Assembly (NCBI GenBank): GCA_027669155.1
Contig: JAQEDR010000042.1
Coordinates: 1 to 5,350 of the forward strand
From: Peptoniphilaceae bacterium AM52-5BH
Lineage (GTDB): Bacteria > Bacillota > Clostridia > Tissierellales > Peptoniphilaceae
Length of the DNA: 5,350 nucleotides
Direction: 5' to 3'
The notes below the pieces were generated by a model, which ran no database searches, was not told where the DNA came from, and saw nothing but the letters and a program-made list of their open reading frames with translations. This document shows positions 1-5,350 of the stretch, in pieces. Each line of letters begins with the position of its first letter. Within the stretch, counting starts at the first letter, position 1. Made by a program: the position numbers and the translations under genes.

Positions 1-83
1 TTATAAAATCTTCCTGGTAGGTCTTTTGCTATCCAATCTCCTGATAGCATAACAATTCTAAGTGGTAAGTTTTTCTTTTCACC
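1..83 (-). pseudogene. Continuation of the NRPS A domain after the TAG stop (partial, runs off the left edge)
   Basis: In the same frame as the upstream NRPS ORF, directly after the TAG, 27 sense codons run to the window edge. They include LRIVMLSGDW and DLPGRF. This is the conserved A-domain stretch that normally follows WNSVP by about 20 residues in HMWP2/PchE-type cysteine A domains (consensus recalled: LRLVLLSGDWI..DLPDRI). Spacing and sequence are what an uninterrupted A domain would show, so nothing but the one stop codon is wrong. An in-frame ATG at 50-48 exists but has no well-placed ribosome binding site and falls inside a strand of the domain, so it is not a credible separate start. 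I list this as the orphaned 3' part of a broken gene; if the TAG is read through or is an error, it belongs to the gene at 84-2483. Confidence 0.8.
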
Positions 84-86
84 CTA
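84..86 (-). other. Single in-frame amber codon interrupting the NRPS
   Basis: Plus-strand CTA at 84-86 reads TAG on the coding strand, giving ...MLVTMA-stop-GEKKNLPLRI. It sits in a variable surface loop of the A domain, not in a core motif. One base change would restore a sense codon (for example CAG Gln, GAG Glu or AAG Lys). No frameshift is needed on either side. Confidence 0.9.
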
Positions 87-2483
87 TGCCATAGTTACGA
101 GCATGTCAAAAAGTATAGGTACAGAGTTCCACACACTTACCTTATATTTTTCAATAATTCTAATCCATTCATCAGGATTACGATAATTATCTTCATTAGT
201 TGTTATTAGAGTTCCACCTACACCAAGTATTCCAAAAATATCATATACTGATAAGTCAAAGTCTATTGCTGACACCATAAGTAACGTATCATTTGAATTA
301 ATAGAATATTTTTCATTTAAATCATTAATAGTATTAATGGCACTTGTGTGCGTGATCTCAACACCCTTTGGCACTCCTGTAGTACCTGATGTCATTATTA
401 TATAGGCTGAGTCAAAAGGGCTTACTTCTATAGGCTTATCAAGACCTAAGGATTTGTCTATAGCCTTGTCTAAGTCAATTAAAGAAACTTCTCCCATATC
501 TAGTTTGTAATTTTCTATTGTTTTATTGTCACTGATGACAAACTTTATGCCAATTTGTTCGTATATTTTAGTTCGTCTTTCGCTAGGTTGGTTTGTTCCA
601 ACAGCAACATATGCTGCCCCAGCAAAGAGTATTCCAAATATAGCATAAATTTGCTTGCTTGATCTTGGGAGAGTAATGCCTACATAGTCTCCCTTTTTTA
701 TTCCATTTTCCTTTAAATATCCTGCTACATTTAAGGATTTTTCATATAAGTCTATATAAGATATTTCTTCTTTAGATTCTGAATCTATAATTGCAAATTT
801 TTCTGGATTTTCTTTTACATTTTTTATAAAACCATCATATAATCTTTCATCAGGAAAGTTTAATGGAAGGATGGATTGAAGCTCTTTTTTTCTTGCTAGT
901 TTTTGATTTTCTGATAGCACATCAGATTTGCTTTCCCAATTTTCTTTTTCTGTTAGTCTTAAAAGTTGTTCTTCTAAAGAATTTAACATGTCATCTAACA
1001 TTTCTTCAGGGAAAAGTTCATCTACACTGTCCCAGCATAATACTAAATCTCCATCTTTTATATATGATTGGAAATCTAAACATACTCCTGGAGTTTGTGA
1101 TACCATATATGTAATTTTGCCTAAAGCTTTCCTTGAAATTTCAGTTTCTATTGGATAGTCCATGTTGCACGCAAAAACTACAGGTGCTACATTAAGGCTT
1201 GTGCCCTGTGATTTTGATATATCTCTTTGAACTTGGACTCCACTATAAGATGAATGGCTGGCATTTTCTATAAAGGTTTTGCTTATTCTATTCAAAGTTT
1301 CTATGAAAGTGGTATCATATTTTCTTTCATGCTCTACTAATAAGATATTTGTAAAGTCTGCTACCATAGCTTTTAAGTTTTCATTTGAAAGATCTCTATT
1401 AAATAATGGTAAATTTATAAAAAACTTATCTTGGTTAGTCCACCTTTCTAGAATTAAAGCATACGCAGTTAATAAAACCATTGATGGAGTAGATTTATAA
1501 CTTGCTGCAATCTCTTTTATTTTGCTCCATTTATCTTTTTCAATAACTCGTTTTCTTCTAGTAAATCTCGGTTCTTTGATTTGTTCAGGGGCTTTTCTTA
1601 ATGGTAAATTTGGTCTTTCTATCTCAAATGAGTCTATTTTTTCTTTCCAAAACTCTTGGTCTTTTTTATAAGTTTCAGAGTCTACTTCAAGATTATTTAT
1701 ATAATCTTTAAAGGTATAATTGTTTAGATTATCTAATTCTTTTCCTGAATAACTTTCCCCTAATTCTTTCAAAAGAATACTCATACTCATGACATCGGCA
1801 ACAAGTAAATCTAAATCAAAGAAAATTTTATTTCTATTCTGCGGTAGATTTGCAAGTTTTAATCCTGCGACTTCTCCTATTTCTACTCTAAGTTTTCTAT
1901 GCGATAAATTTTCTCGTATTTCTTCTAGTCTAATTTTGCCTTCTTCTTCATCTAAATTAGATAAATCAAAAACTTCAATTTCTTCACTAAAAGGTTTATC
2001 TAATATTTCTTGTTTTCCATCTTCTGTGAATCTTGCTCTGAGCATTGGATGTCTATATTGAAGTTTATTCCAGGCATCATTCAATCTTTTACAATCTATT
2101 TCTTCTCCATCTATTTCAATATAGGCATGACAACCTACTTCTTCTTGTATTTGATTATCATGACCGCCTACAAAATAAGCATACTGAGTATCAGTTAATT
2201 CAAATTGTTTGTTTCCTATGACTTTTTTATTAGAATTATTTGAATTATTTAATTTACGTGCATTTTTTATTGCAATTTCCCATTCAGCAAAACACGGCTT
2301 TTCCATTAATTTAGAAAATGATACATTAATATTGTGCCTTTTTAATTTGCTTATTATTCCCATAACGTTTACTGAAGTTATGCCCAATTCTATTAAATTA
2401 TCGCTGTCTTTTATTTCGTTATTACTTATATAACTTCTAACTTGTTCTTTAACATCATTTAACAAATCATATAAATCAGCCAT
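84..2483 (-). CDS. NRPS loading/first module, ArCP-Cy-A, interrupted by in-frame TAG in the A domain
   Basis: This is the N-terminal part of a cytosolic NRPS of the HMWP2/PchE type. It would accept an aryl acid, condense it with cysteine and cyclise it. Numbering is from ATG 2483 (799 aa). An aryl carrier domain (about 5-75) has LGITS with the phosphopantetheine Ser37. An Asn/Ser/Lys-rich linker (about 78-92) follows. The Cy domain (about 94-530) shows FELTDTQYAYF (94), RHPMLR (144), the diagnostic DxxxxDxxS (D225, D230, S233) instead of HHxxxDG, ADFT (375) and SQTPGVCLD (462-470). The A domain starts near 545: SYIDLYE (575), LFAGAAYV (619), TSGTTGVPKG (698-707), FDLSVYD (742-748) and WNSVP (785-789). 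A TAG then ends the frame before motif A5, so the C-terminal half of A and the usual PCP are missing from this ORF. A TTG at 2501 also opens the frame, but it lies inside the ribosome binding site, so ATG 2483 is preferred. The start is 23 nt after the AMP-ligase stop. Domain calls are firm; whether the gene is functional is open. Confidence 0.9.
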   Translation of the reverse strand: MADLYDLLNDVKEQVRSYISNNEIKDSDNLIELGITSVNVMGIISKLKRHNINVSFSKLMEKPCFAEWEIAIKNARKLNNSNNSNKKVIGNKQFELTDTQYAYFVGGHDNQIQEEVGCHAYIEIDGEEIDCKRLNDAWNKLQYRHPMLRARFTEDGKQEILDKPFSEEIEVFDLSNLDEEEGKIRLEEIRENLSHRKLRVEIGEVAGLKLANLPQNRNKIFFDLDLLVADVMSMSILLKELGESYSGKELDNLNNYTFKDYINNLEVDSETYKKDQEFWKEKIDSFEIERPNLPLRKAPEQIKEPRFTRRKRVIEKDKWSKIKEIAASYKSTPSMVLLTAYALILERWTNQDKFFINLPLFNRDLSNENLKAMVADFTNILLVEHERKYDTTFIETLNRISKTFIENASHSSYSGVQVQRDISKSQGTSLNVAPVVFACNMDYPIETEISRKALGKITYMVSQTPGVCLDFQSYIKDGDLVLCWDSVDELFPEEMLDDMLNSLEEQLLRLTEKENWESKSDVLSENQKLARKKELQSILPLNFPDERLYDGFIKNVKENPEKFAIIDSESKEEISYIDLYEKSLNVAGYLKENGIKKGDYVGITLPRSSKQIYAIFGILFAGAAYVAVGTNQPSERRTKIYEQIGIKFVISDNKTIENYKLDMGEVSLIDLDKAIDKSLGLDKPIEVSPFDSAYIIMTSGTTGVPKGVEITHTSAINTINDLNEKYSINSNDTLLMVSAIDFDLSVYDIFGILGVGGTLITTNEDNYRNPDEWIRIIEKYKVSVWNSVPILFDMLVTMA

Positions 2484-2490
2484 TTTTAGT

Positions 2491-2499
2491 CCTCCCTCC
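2491..2499 (-). promoter_or_regulatory. Ribosome binding site of the NRPS gene
   Basis: The coding strand reads GGAGGGAGG, then 7 nt (ACTAAAA), then ATG at 2483. This near-perfect Shine-Dalgarno sequence decides the start: the TTG at 2501 that opens the frame earlier overlaps it and cannot be its own start. Confidence 0.85.
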
Positions 2500-2506
2500 A
2501 AATACT

Positions 2507-4099
2507 CTAATTATCATAGTTTTCTATTAGCTTTCTTCTATCTATTTTTCCTGTCGCAGTTAATGGCCAATTGTCAACTATTTTCATGCAATCTGGAATC
2601 TTAAATTCTGCTATACTAGCCTCTTTCAAAGTTTGAATAATTTCAGAAAATTTCAAGTTCTTATCTTTTTCTAGAATAAACACACAAATTTTCTCGCCCA
2701 ATATTTCATCAGGGATTCCAACTACTTGAACTTCTGATAAATTTTCACTTTCCAATAATATATTTTCTAATTCAAAAGGAACAATTTTCTCTCCGCCCTT
2801 AATTATCATTTCTTTAATCCTCCCAGCTATTTGATAATTCCCATCTAACAACTCTCTAGCTCTATCTCCGGTTCTTAAATATAATTCTTTATCTAATATA
2901 GGATTGTGAGTATTATTCATTTCATCATAATACTCATACATCGTATACGGACCTCTTATAAGTAACTCACCATAATCACCTATATTTACTTCTTCTCCAA
3001 ACTCATCTACTATTTTTACACTATCTCCAATAGATACTGGTTTTCCTTGAGTATTAAGCCTTGTTTCTCTACTATCGCCAAATCTAGTACACATAACTAA
3101 TCCTTCAGTCATTCCATATAATTGTGAAATAACACATCCAAAAGTTTTTTCAATTTCAAATGCTTTACTGTACTCTAAAACTGCTCCACCAACTTGTATA
3201 ATTTTTAATGATGAAATATCAACTTTTTCAAATTTTAAAAAATCTATACATAAACTTGCTAACGCTGGAACTAACGCCATTGTATTAATATTATATTTTT
3301 CAATATTATAAATTATATCGTCAGGACTCGATGTCATAGATATTACGCATTTAGCACCATAATAAAATACGCCTATAATACCTGGATAAGATAAAACAAA
3401 CTTATGAGATAAAGATAACGCCATCAAATATACCGTAGAATCTGAATAATTTAAAACATCACCTATCGATTTAGCGGAACAAATTAACTCGCAATGTTTC
3501 ATAGGAATCATTTTAGGATTACCTGTTGTACCACTCGACAACATAAGCAAAGCCAATTCTTTATAATCACCGTTTATACATTGATATAGATAATCTTTAT
3601 CATTAATATCATAAAAATTTTTATATTCCTGTTCTTCTCCAAGAATATAAACTTCAAAATCTATATCTAATTCTTCTTTTACTTCTTTTATCATATTTAC
3701 ATAAGAAAAGCCTAAATATTTATCTTTAGATATATATGCTTTTGCCCCTGATTTTTCTAATATTCCCTTTATTTCATTTTTCCTGTGAGCTGGAAGAGAT
3801 AATACTGGAACAATACCAATCTTAAACATAGCAAAAAGGATAATAACAAATTCATGGCAATTAGGAAGCTGAAGAACAATTTTATCTCCCTTTTTAAATC
3901 CAGCTTTCAATAAACCATTGGCATATTGGCAAGCTTTTCTATTTAATTCTTGATATGAAAGTTCAACATCTCCATCTACTAAGGCAATTTTATCCCCATA
4001 TTTTTTAGCACAATCTTCAATAAATTCTCCTAAGGTCATATGCGGCCATACTTGCTCATCATAAAATTTTTCTAATTTTTCTTTTAATTTAATGTTCAT
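2507..4099 (-). CDS. Aryl-acid AMP ligase (DhbE/YbtE-like), stand-alone adenylating enzyme
   Basis: 530 aa from ATG 4099, the normal length for 2,3-dihydroxybenzoate- and salicylate-AMP ligases (about 525-540). It would adenylate an aromatic acid with ATP and pass it to the aryl carrier of the adjacent NRPS. Visible motifs: N-terminal DEQVWPHMTLGEF region, SYQEL (48), P-loop SSGTTGNPK (188-196), VPALA (278), QVGGA (302), LYGMTEGLVMCTR (327-339; compare the DhbE-family FGMAEGLVNYTR), LRTGDRA with ribose-binding Asp412, hinge GRIKEMIIKGGE (426-437) and TATGKID with catalytic Lys518. There is no carrier domain. The acid pocket differs from the DHB and salicylate consensus: SHKF (231-234) has Lys233 where these enzymes have Asn. 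The family is clear, but the substrate is not. The stop is TAG at 2509-2507, with an in-frame TAA six codons later. An ATG at 4117 lies upstream of the ribosome binding site and is less likely. Confidence 0.92.
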   Translation of the reverse strand: MNIKLKEKLEKFYDEQVWPHMTLGEFIEDCAKKYGDKIALVDGDVELSYQELNRKACQYANGLLKAGFKKGDKIVLQLPNCHEFVIILFAMFKIGIVPVLSLPAHRKNEIKGILEKSGAKAYISKDKYLGFSYVNMIKEVKEELDIDFEVYILGEEQEYKNFYDINDKDYLYQCINGDYKELALLMLSSGTTGNPKMIPMKHCELICSAKSIGDVLNYSDSTVYLMALSLSHKFVLSYPGIIGVFYYGAKCVISMTSSPDDIIYNIEKYNINTMALVPALASLCIDFLKFEKVDISSLKIIQVGGAVLEYSKAFEIEKTFGCVISQLYGMTEGLVMCTRFGDSRETRLNTQGKPVSIGDSVKIVDEFGEEVNIGDYGELLIRGPYTMYEYYDEMNNTHNPILDKELYLRTGDRARELLDGNYQIAGRIKEMIIKGGEKIVPFELENILLESENLSEVQVVGIPDEILGEKICVFILEKDKNLKFSEIIQTLKEASIAEFKIPDCMKIVDNWPLTATGKIDRRKLIENYDN

Positions 4100-4791
4100 T
4101 AATTTTCCTCCAAGCATATTGCCCCGACATATTTGTCGTCATAGTTTAATGACTTTAATCTACTTATTGTATTCCTTTTACTATCATTAATTTCTATAAA
4201 TTCATTTCCAAAAGAAATTATTTCAATCTCTTTTAAATTCCCTATAAGACCAATCCCATCACATTTAAGATAGGCTTCTTTTGCAGTCCAATATCTATAG
4301 AAACTGATTATGTTGTTATCTATATTTATGATTTCACCCTTAGTAAAACAGTTTTCTAATATATCCTTAAACTCAAATTTATAATTTATTTTTTCAACAT
4401 CTACTCCTACTTCTATTTTAGAAAAAGCTAATAAGACTAAGCCTTCTGTATGGGATATGTTAAACTTTAATCCTAGAGTGTTCTCTACATAAGGCTTATT
4501 GTTTTTATCCCTCTTGACTGTTAAATCATTAATTCCTTTTTCGAGTAAACCTTTTAAGGTCAAATTAAGTATTGCCCTTGATACTGTATAATTAATTTTT
4601 GCTATTTCTGATTTATAATCCTTTGATTTTATTATCTCCTCTTCAGTTAAATAAGAAAGTAATTTTTCTTCTAATAATTTATCTGTATAAGCCTTAATGA
4701 GTATTAAATCATTATTAGATAATTTAGCTTTTAAATTTTCTAAGGTAAGAAAATCTTTAGTATTTCTTATCTCATATTCTTCAATTTTCAT
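4099..4791 (-). CDS. Sfp-type 4'-phosphopantetheinyl transferase
   Basis: 230 aa, the usual size of the Sfp/EntD group (Sfp is 224 aa). It moves 4'-phosphopantetheine from coenzyme A to the serine of carrier domains, here presumably Ser37 of the NRPS aryl carrier and the later PCPs. Motifs: KPYV (99-102), NISHTEG (111-117), VGVDVE (128-133) with Mg-binding Asp131 and Glu133, and the signature WTAKEAYLK (168-176) with Glu172. All expected catalytic acids are present and the frame is intact. The start overlaps the end of the thioesterase by 11 nt. There is no good Shine-Dalgarno sequence in front of ATG 4791, so translation probably depends on coupling to the thioesterase. The TAA stop shares its last A with the next gene's ATG (TAATG). 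Having the activating enzyme in the operon suggests a self-contained biosynthetic unit. Confidence 0.93.
   Translation of the reverse strand: MKIEEYEIRNTKDFLTLENLKAKLSNNDLILIKAYTDKLLEEKLLSYLTEEEIIKSKDYKSEIAKINYTVSRAILNLTLKGLLEKGINDLTVKRDKNNKPYVENTLGLKFNISHTEGLVLLAFSKIEVGVDVEKINYKFEFKDILENCFTKGEIINIDNNIISFYRYWTAKEAYLKCDGIGLIGNLKEIEIISFGNEFIEINDSKRNTISRLKSLNYDDKYVGAICLEEN
4107..4111 (-). promoter_or_regulatory. Ribosome binding site of the AMP-ligase gene, inside the end of the PPTase gene
   Basis: GGAGG on the coding strand is followed by 7 nt (AAAATTA) and ATG at 4099. It is formed by the last codons (Leu-Glu-Glu) of the phosphopantetheinyl transferase, so ribosomes ending that gene sit next to this start. 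It supports ATG 4099 over the in-frame ATG 4117. Confidence 0.8.
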
Positions 4792-5350
4792 TTACTTTTA
4801 TAAACTCTTTTATCTCTTTAATGACACTTTCAGGAGATGTGTTGACAAACATATGCTTGCCATCTATATATCTATAAGTGAATTCTTTTGTGGTATAATC
4901 TTTCCATTTTATAAGTTCATCTAAGGTCATTTCTTGATCTTTATCTCCCATAAGACCTAGTATAGGTGATTCTAATTTCTCAAATTTTGTGTCTTGATAG
5001 TCTTCATCTATTACAAAATCTGCCCTAAGCGTTGGCAAGAAAATAGAAATTAAATTCTTATTATCTAAAATTTCTTTTGGTGTTCCCTCATATCTTCTCA
5101 ATCCTTCTGTAAATCCGTCATCGTCAAGATGATAAATTGGATGAGGTTCTTTGTATAATGGAGCACGCCCTCCTGATATGATTATTCCTCTTGGATTTAT
5201 GTAAGTTGAATTTTTAATTCTTAAAGCAAGTTCATAGACTATTTTTGTTCCCATACTGTGTCCAAATAAATAATAAGGTTTTCCAAAATCAAAATTTTCT
5301 TTCATATCTTCAAATAGATTATCTACTAAGATGTTAATATCACTTATAGC
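4781..5350 (-). CDS. Type II thioesterase (GrsT/YbtT/PchC-like), 5' end outside the window
   Basis: An alpha/beta-hydrolase that would free NRPS carrier domains from wrong or stalled acyl groups. The frame is open to the window edge: 189 residues are visible, and 15 lie upstream of the Met at 5305, which is therefore internal. The motif YYLFGHSMG holds the catalytic Ser (codon at 5257-5255). Further in come LRADF, the GDKDQ acid segment with the likely catalytic Asp, and DGKHMFV with the catalytic His. The family is usually about 240-250 aa, so roughly 50-60 N-terminal residues are missing. It ends in TGA at 4783-4781, inside the start of the transferase gene. A separate thioesterase beside an aryl-AMP ligase and an ArCP-Cy-A NRPS repeats the pyochelin and yersiniabactin clusters. 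No signal peptide can be judged because the start is absent. Confidence 0.92.
   Translation of the reverse strand, partial: AISDINILVDNLFEDMKENFDFGKPYYLFGHSMGTKIVYELALRIKNSTYINPRGIIISGGRAPLYKEPHPIYHLDDDGFTEGLRRYEGTPKEILDNKNLISIFLPTLRADFVIDEDYQDTKFEKLESPILGLMGDKDQEMTLDELIKWKDYTTKEFTYRYIDGKHMFVNTSPESVIKEIKEFIKVNEN

What the first reader, a model, noticed from the sequence alone, without database searches (positions are those of the whole stretch)
1..140. One in-frame TAG splits an otherwise intact NRPS adenylation domain
Seen directly: the NRPS frame ends at TAG 84-86 after ...WNSVPILFDMLVTMA and continues in the same frame as GEKKNLPLRIVMLSGDW to the edge. The A domain is cut between its A4 and A5 motifs, where no natural protein end is expected, and the far side shows no decay. 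Options are a very recent nonsense mutation that silences the pathway in this strain (phase-variable or cheater-like loss of metallophore production), translational read-through or amber suppression, or a base-call error. The other genes here are intact, so decay, if real, has only begun.
Basis: partly seen in the sequence, partly recalled or inferred. Interest (0 to 1): 0.8.

Follow-up and report, generated by a model that had tools for sequence, protein, structure and literature searches.

The report
Metallophore synthetase gene broken by stop
A gene for an enzyme predicted to help make a metal-scavenging molecule carries one in-frame stop codon where every related copy compared has an ordinary codon, so the pathway is likely switched off in this bacterium; this is an ordinary kind of gene damage, and breaks at other sites of the same gene appear in some relatives.

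Summary
On the minus strand TAG 84-86 ends an open frame (probable start ATG 2483, 799 codons) inside the adenylation domain; the same frame continues for the 27 codons left in the window. The gene is the first NRPS (ArCP-Cy-A) of a predicted equibactin/yersiniabactin-like locus, known from mobile DNA of Peptoniphilaceae. In 17 of 17 distinct orthologous places the column holds the same sense residue, and no close relative was found that ends there with a second gene behind. TAG is an ordinary terminator in related loci (31 of 145 long frames) and PylS exceeds its cut-off in 0 of 130 family genomes, so recoding is unlikely. The site is a substitution outside long homopolymers and repeats, so slippage is not supported. 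The window shows no excess of amino-acid change, so the stop is young or a base-call error; no reads are held. The same gene is broken at other sites in 3 of 18 relatives (an in-frame TAA, two frame changes, one of them at a homopolymer), while three neighbouring genes stay open; the contrast is not significant. Best reading: a recent nonsense mutation that likely silences the pathway. By-catch: a recombined starter-loading block with an unusual ligase pocket.

The parts
84..86 (-). in-frame TAG that ends the NRPS frame inside the adenylation domain
   Evidence: sense codon at this column in 17 of 17 distinct orthologous places
87..2483 (-). open part of the first NRPS gene (EqbE/HMWP2/PchE-like), probable start ATG 2483, 799 codons; ArCP about 2429-2280, condensation/cyclisation domain about 2123-909, start of adenylation domain about 824-93
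   Evidence: (mechanical frame starts at TTG 2501), Pfam; best solved relative is PchE 7emy over query 29-803; start and ribosome site read from the sequence
3..83 (-). same frame beyond the stop, 27 codons to the window edge, matches the A domain of relatives
   Evidence: one private difference, synonymous
2507..4117 (-). stand-alone aryl-acid AMP ligase (EqbD/DhbE-like), open; pocket H-K-F-Y instead of H-N-F-C
4099..4791 (-). 4'-phosphopantetheinyl transferase (EqbC-like), open
4781..5350 (-). type II thioesterase (EqbB-like), 5' end beyond the window, visible 189 codons open
2190..3560 (-). recombined starter block: ligase after its first third plus ArCP region, divergent between loci whose flanks are about 90-97% identical (boundaries approximate)
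   Evidence: blastn matches break at 2187 and 3485-3581

Best explanation
A single in-frame TAG (minus strand 84-86) interrupts the adenylation domain of the first NRPS gene of a predicted equibactin-like metallophore locus, and it is likely a recent nonsense mutation that would leave a truncated protein unable to activate and carry its amino acid. Shown: the stop, the sense codon in the 17 orthologous places compared, the open frame on both sides, and open neighbouring genes. Inferred: translation ends there and yields ArCP-Cy plus part of an A domain, without the later A motifs and without the carrier domain that relatives have; aryl acid may still be loaded on the ArCP, but the partner for the first condensation and cyclisation is missing, so no finished product is made. 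The thioesterase, transferase and ligase genes lie upstream of the lesion in the same direction and would still be made; the second synthetase, downstream in relatives, could suffer polarity. Breaks of the same gene in relatives fit a costly, mobile, dispensable pathway.
For: Frame and stop. Domain cut: (profile end 272/384) against the intact relative. Sense residue in 17 of 17 distinct orthologous places, 68-98% identical over the preceding 60 residues. No downstream gene of its own in relatives: with the C-terminal part of L001 as query, the best full-coverage fragment was 49% identical and the closest partial ones 71-75% over 44-53% of the query. TAG ends 31 of 145 long frames of 15 related loci. 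Breaks of this gene in relatives: L003/G039 in-frame TAA at codon 167 (a substitution), L008/G126 and L017/G021 frame changes; 3 of 18 loci. Thioesterase and ligase match in one piece without a stop in 18 of 18 loci; transferase in 18 of 18, with one stop next to its end in L012. In G126 eight genes downstream of the synthetases, two ABC transporters among them (Pfam), are open and 98.8-100% identical to those of intact G001; a further one is matched in two pieces. The locus is flanked by a relaxase in L002 and a serine recombinase in G001 and lies on a conjugative plasmid in A. prevotii, so it is mobile and dispensable. In S. equi, small colonies caused by deleting the repressor gene eqbA became large again when eqbE was deleted too (PMC3672683, passages seen), a possible reason for loss.
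Against: No reads and no own genome, so a base-call error is not excluded. No sign of relaxed selection: window private N/S 19/14 against 46/41 pooled over 8 relatives (p 0.69); private changes at deep-invariant sites 4 of 19 against 9 of 46. Breaks in this gene against the three neighbours, 3 of 18 against 0 of 18 loci, are not significant (p 0.23), and 3 of the 5 breaks seen in the relatives' two synthetases are homopolymer length changes that could be sequencing errors. A ligase 96% identical to the window's exists in unnamed public assemblies (P0121), but its NRPS could not be identified, so the nearest lineage is not checked. No function was tested.
Confidence: 0.68

Rival explanations
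1. The TAG is a base-call or assembly error and the gene is intact.
For: One substitution suffices; the site is 84 bases from the window end; no excess of amino-acid change; 17 of 17 orthologous places are sense here; no reads or own genome held.
Against: The 81 bases beyond the stop differ privately at only 1 base, so the end of the window is not visibly noisy; the other codons of the NRPS and the ligase and transferase have no frame error; a substitution-type stop exists elsewhere in the same gene of A. vaginalis PH9.
Confidence: 0.24
2. The TAG is read through (amber suppressor, pyrrolysine or programmed recoding), and full-length enzyme is made.
For: The frame stays open and conserved for the 27 codons visible after the stop.
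Against: 0 of 17 orthologous places have a stop at this column and TAG ends 31 of 145 long frames of related loci; PylS is over its curated cut-off in 0 of 130 family genomes and in 1 of the 14 control genomes; no tRNA or Rfam match in the window. The source genome itself could not be searched, and suppressor tRNAs were not sought in relatives.
Confidence: 0.04
3. The truncated protein is a working short form: its ArCP hands the aryl acid straight to the second synthetase, giving a shorter product.
For: Relatives of another type have a first NRPS without an A domain (P0023, 646 aa), and the second synthetase of the close group has condensation, A and carrier domains of its own.
Against: The A-less natural form keeps a C-terminal carrier domain; here the frame ends inside the A domain. 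The second synthetase of the source strain is outside the window.
Confidence: 0.03
4. Phase-variable on/off switching at this site.
For: Homopolymer length changes break this gene in L008 and its partner in L003 and L010, so slippage might switch the locus at other sites.
Against: The window site is a substitution; no repeat found covers it and no run longer than 5 lies within 15 bases.
Confidence: 0.01

Closest known systems
Equibactin locus (eqbB, C, D, E) of ICESe2, Streptococcus equi (PMC3672683)
   Same: Same gene kinds (thioesterase, phosphopantetheinyl transferase, aryl-AMP ligase, NRPS with ArCP and A domain); NRPS 65% identical to an S. equi record over 98% of the query (P0005); relatives on mobile DNA
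   Different: Ligase pocket H-K-F-Y instead of the salicylate-type N-F-C; the second synthetase of the close group has its own A domain, whereas the paper describes a single A domain; NRPS interrupted by TAG
Yersiniabactin HMWP2 / pyochelin PchE
   Same: Domain order; cysteine-type A code as far as visible; PchE 7emy is the best solved relative
   Different: Distant sequence, different host group, truncated here
Clusters of Peptoniphilus ovalis, Mediannikoviicoccus vaginalis, Fenollaria timonensis (L001, L002, L004)
   Same: About 92% DNA identity over the window, same gene order and same ligase pocket residues
   Different: First NRPS open, 1146 aa
Copies in Anaerococcus vaginalis PH9, Peptoniphilus obesi, Anaerococcus octavius (L003, L008, L017)
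   Same: Same gene broken, thioesterase, transferase and ligase open
   Different: Different sites and kinds of lesion
Equibactin-like cluster in a transposable island of Clostridium difficile RT023 (PMC6814731, passages)
   Same: Equibactin-like cluster on mobile DNA of an anaerobe
   Different: Not compared by sequence here

Membership tests
Equibactin/yersiniabactin-type metallophore locus | Aryl-AMP ligase, carrier activation enzyme, thioesterase and ArCP-Cy-A NRPS side by side | tested here: met
   the NRPS is truncated
Equibactin/yersiniabactin-type metallophore locus | Cysteine code of the A domain (table in PMC3672683: D L Y N M S M I for HMWP2, D at the fourth place in EqbE) | tested here: inconclusive
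   D, L, Y, N before the stop and M, S after it can be read by eye's output against the table passage; the last two positions are outside the window
Equibactin/yersiniabactin-type metallophore locus | Salicylate (or DHB) pocket of the ligase | tested here: not met
   H-K-F-Y in the window and 5 of 18 loci; H-N-F-C in 13 of 18 loci and in 101 of the 120 listed protein relatives
Equibactin/yersiniabactin-type metallophore locus | Metal-dependent repressor and import genes | not testable with these tools
   outside the window; a metal-dependent regulator and ABC transporters are annotated on pAPRE01
Pseudogene by nonsense mutation | Premature stop where homologues are sense | tested here: met
   17 of 17
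Pseudogene by nonsense mutation | Relaxed selection | tested here: inconclusive
   N/S 19/14 against 46/41, p 0.69
Pseudogene by nonsense mutation | Loss of product | not testable with these tools
   needs the strain
UAG recoding (pyrrolysine) | PylS in the genome | tested here: not met
   0 of 130 family genomes over cut-off; the source genome is not held
UAG recoding (pyrrolysine) | UAG conserved at the site | tested here: not met
   0 of 17

The most novel reading that the evidence does not exclude
Mobile equibactin-like pathways of human-associated anaerobic cocci are repeatedly turned from producer to non-producer by breaking a megasynthase while starter loading and uptake genes stay intact: a travelling public good whose carriers turn cheater, and this window is one such event caught at its start.
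Probability: 0.2. Interest if true: 0.5.

Novelty: new member of a known kind. Interest (0 to 1): 0.22.

Why it matters
One nonsense codon in an accessory NRPS gene is ordinary. It matters mildly because the same gene is also broken in three relatives at other sites, which makes producer/non-producer dynamics of a mobile metallophore locus testable in strain collections, and because the locus shows a swapped starter-loading block with an unusual pocket, pointing to a product that is probably not plain equibactin.

Tried and rejected
Own genome: none held. Viral collection: no exact match of the stop region and no relative; no phage match; one plasmid, pAPRE01. Decay signature by private substitutions: no excess. 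One search also tested deep-invariant sites, but with 11 of 46 for the relatives by my slip; the count is 9 of 46, so I cite no p value for it. Repeats at the site: none found (which leaves out units of one to three bases; runs were checked). Natural two-gene split: no close-clade downstream fragment (the protein collection is clustered at 90%, so fragments can hide inside clusters). Pyrrolysine: only hits far under the cut-off (best 38 against 178 bits). Sequencing-error control: rpoB open in 23 of 23 genomes, rpoC and uvrA in 5 of 5; weak, since the five were picked for broken NRPS genes or fragments. G113:C4 fragments were left out of the lesion count: the 6468-base contig reads like two inverted copies, possibly an assembly artefact; G113:C5 has shorter synthetase frames than its kin and was not resolved. 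Two stops inside matches in A. octavius transport-type genes proved to lie 2-3 residues before the match end, so not lesions. Literature: searches were seen as search listings, PMC3672683 and PMC6814731 as passages; none of these showed this lesion, and the library holds open-licence papers only.

Full report
What is there. The minus strand of the window carries, in transcription order, the end of a type II thioesterase gene (5350-4781, 5' end outside), a phosphopantetheinyl transferase (4791-4099), a stand-alone aryl-AMP ligase (4117-2507) and the first part of an NRPS. The NRPS begins most likely at ATG 2483, behind a GGAGG-type ribosome site read from the sequence, and runs 799 codons to TAG 86-84; the same frame stays open for the remaining 27 codons. 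Pfam sees a carrier domain, a condensation domain and the first 272 of 384 positions of AMP-binding. The best solved relative is PchE (7emy).

Relatives. A scan of genome contigs gave 17 loci, a plasmid search one more, pAPRE01 of Anaerococcus prevotii, typed conjugative. Five loci match the whole window at about 92% DNA identity (L001-L004, L008). In L002 a relaxase gene lies upstream of the locus, and in G001 a serine recombinase downstream. In the family of G001, 23 of 130 genomes hold the NRPS at E <= 1e-150. In 17 of 17 distinct orthologous places the codon at the TAG column is sense and codes the same residue (places that lack the A domain have no such column and were not counted; L051 among the 17 may be an artefact). 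The best protein hits are 93% and 91% identical, 1146 aa and uninterrupted (P0001, P0002). With the part of L001 behind the column as query, the best full-coverage fragment was 49% identical and the closest partial ones 71-75%, so no close relative was seen to end here with a second gene behind.

Recoding or phase variation. Of 145 long frames in 15 related loci, 31 end in TAG (mechanical frames, antisense ones included). PylS over its cut-off: 0 of 130 family genomes, 1 of 14 controls. The site is a substitution within an ungapped alignment; no repeat found covers it and no run longer than 5 lies within 15 bases.

Has decay begun? In residues 105-805, eight relatives were compared with the window: L019 (equal to L001) for the L001 group, and L024-L030. 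L022, L023 and L034/L046 were left out as near copies of L001, and five A-less partial places as incomplete. Private changes: window 19 nonsynonymous, 14 synonymous; the eight others together 46 and 41 (Fisher p 0.69). Private changes at sites invariant in 13 deeper relatives: 4 of 19 against 9 of 46. So no excess: the stop is young, or not real. Reads are not held.

Breaks in relatives. Among 18 loci the first NRPS is broken in three: L003 (A. vaginalis PH9; in-frame TAA at codon 167, a substitution), L008 (P. obesi; one-base homopolymer change) and L017 (A. octavius; frame change). The second NRPS, found at 50% identity or more in 9 loci, changes frame in L003 and L010, both at homopolymers. 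Thioesterase and ligase match in one piece without a stop in 18 of 18; so does the transferase, apart from a stop next to its end in L012. The contrast 3 of 18 against 0 of 18 is not significant (p 0.23). rpoB is open in 23 of 23 genomes, rpoC and uvrA in 5 of 5. In G126, whose first NRPS is frameshifted, the second NRPS is open and eight genes behind it, two ABC transporters among them, are open and 98.8-100% identical to those of G001; a ninth is matched in two pieces and the recombinase at 96%. In S. equi, small colonies after loss of the repressor EqbA became large when eqbE was deleted too, and an eqbD pseudogene is noted in S. agalactiae (PMC3672683, passages). Loss in this kind of locus is therefore not new.

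How it would work. Inferred: ribosomes end at TAG; the protein has ArCP, cyclisation domain and part of an A domain, without the later A motifs and the carrier domain seen in L002. Aryl loading may continue, the first amino acid is not activated or carried by this protein, and the pathway stops. The second synthetase of the close group has an A domain of its own, which leaves open a short product; I give that 3%.

Starter block. Window against L005, L007 and L018: 92-97% identity over about 1-1750 and 90-97% over 3751-5250, but 62-70% over 2251-3500; L013, which lacks the A domain, gives 92-95% over 1001-2000, 91-97% over 3751-5250 and 62-70% between; L006 has no match in the block, L010 61-67% or none; the L001 group is 83-87% there against 91-98% elsewhere. 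The block is the ligase after its first third plus the ArCP region. The ligase residues at DhbE 234, 235, 236 and 240 (mapped by the alignment) are H-K-F-Y in the window and in L001-L004 and L008 (5 of 18), and H-N-F-C in the other 13 of 18 loci. Of the 120 listed ligase relatives, 101 have H-N-F-C, 7 H-K-F-C, 3 H-K-F-Y and 9 other sets. PMC3672683 lists N-F-C for salicylate enzymes and for one 3-hydroxypicolinate enzyme (passage). The starter of this locus is thus probably not salicylate; which acid it is, is unknown.

Verdict. Confirmed observation, ordinary cause: likely a recent nonsense mutation in an accessory metallophore synthetase, with base-call error as the main rival.

Noticed in passing
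window 2190-3560 (minus strand): Starter-loading block (ligase after its first third plus ArCP region) exchanged between loci that are about 90-97% identical on both sides; two main ligase pocket types, H-K-F-Y and H-N-F-C.
   Followed up: partly
L010, L011, L013, L015; P0023: Natural first NRPS without an A domain (ArCP-Cy-PCP, 646 aa) beside a second synthetase that carries an A domain.
   Followed up: partly
L003 codon 167 of first NRPS and about 17390; L008 about 11880; L010 about 17417; L017 about 11500: Stops and frame changes in the first or second NRPS of relatives; three of the five are homopolymer length changes and may be sequencing errors or slippage.
   Followed up: partly
window 126-128 (minus strand): The window has Asn at A-domain code position 278, as canonical cysteine domains do, where the eight close relatives compared share another residue; L017 has Asn too.
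   Followed up: no
L018 34693-42491: pAPRE01 also carries a class III lanthipeptide locus with four annotated precursor genes near the metallophore locus.
   Followed up: no
L051 (G113:C4, 6468 bases): Contig that reads as two inverted copies of degenerate NRPS pieces; possible assembly artefact.
   Followed up: partly
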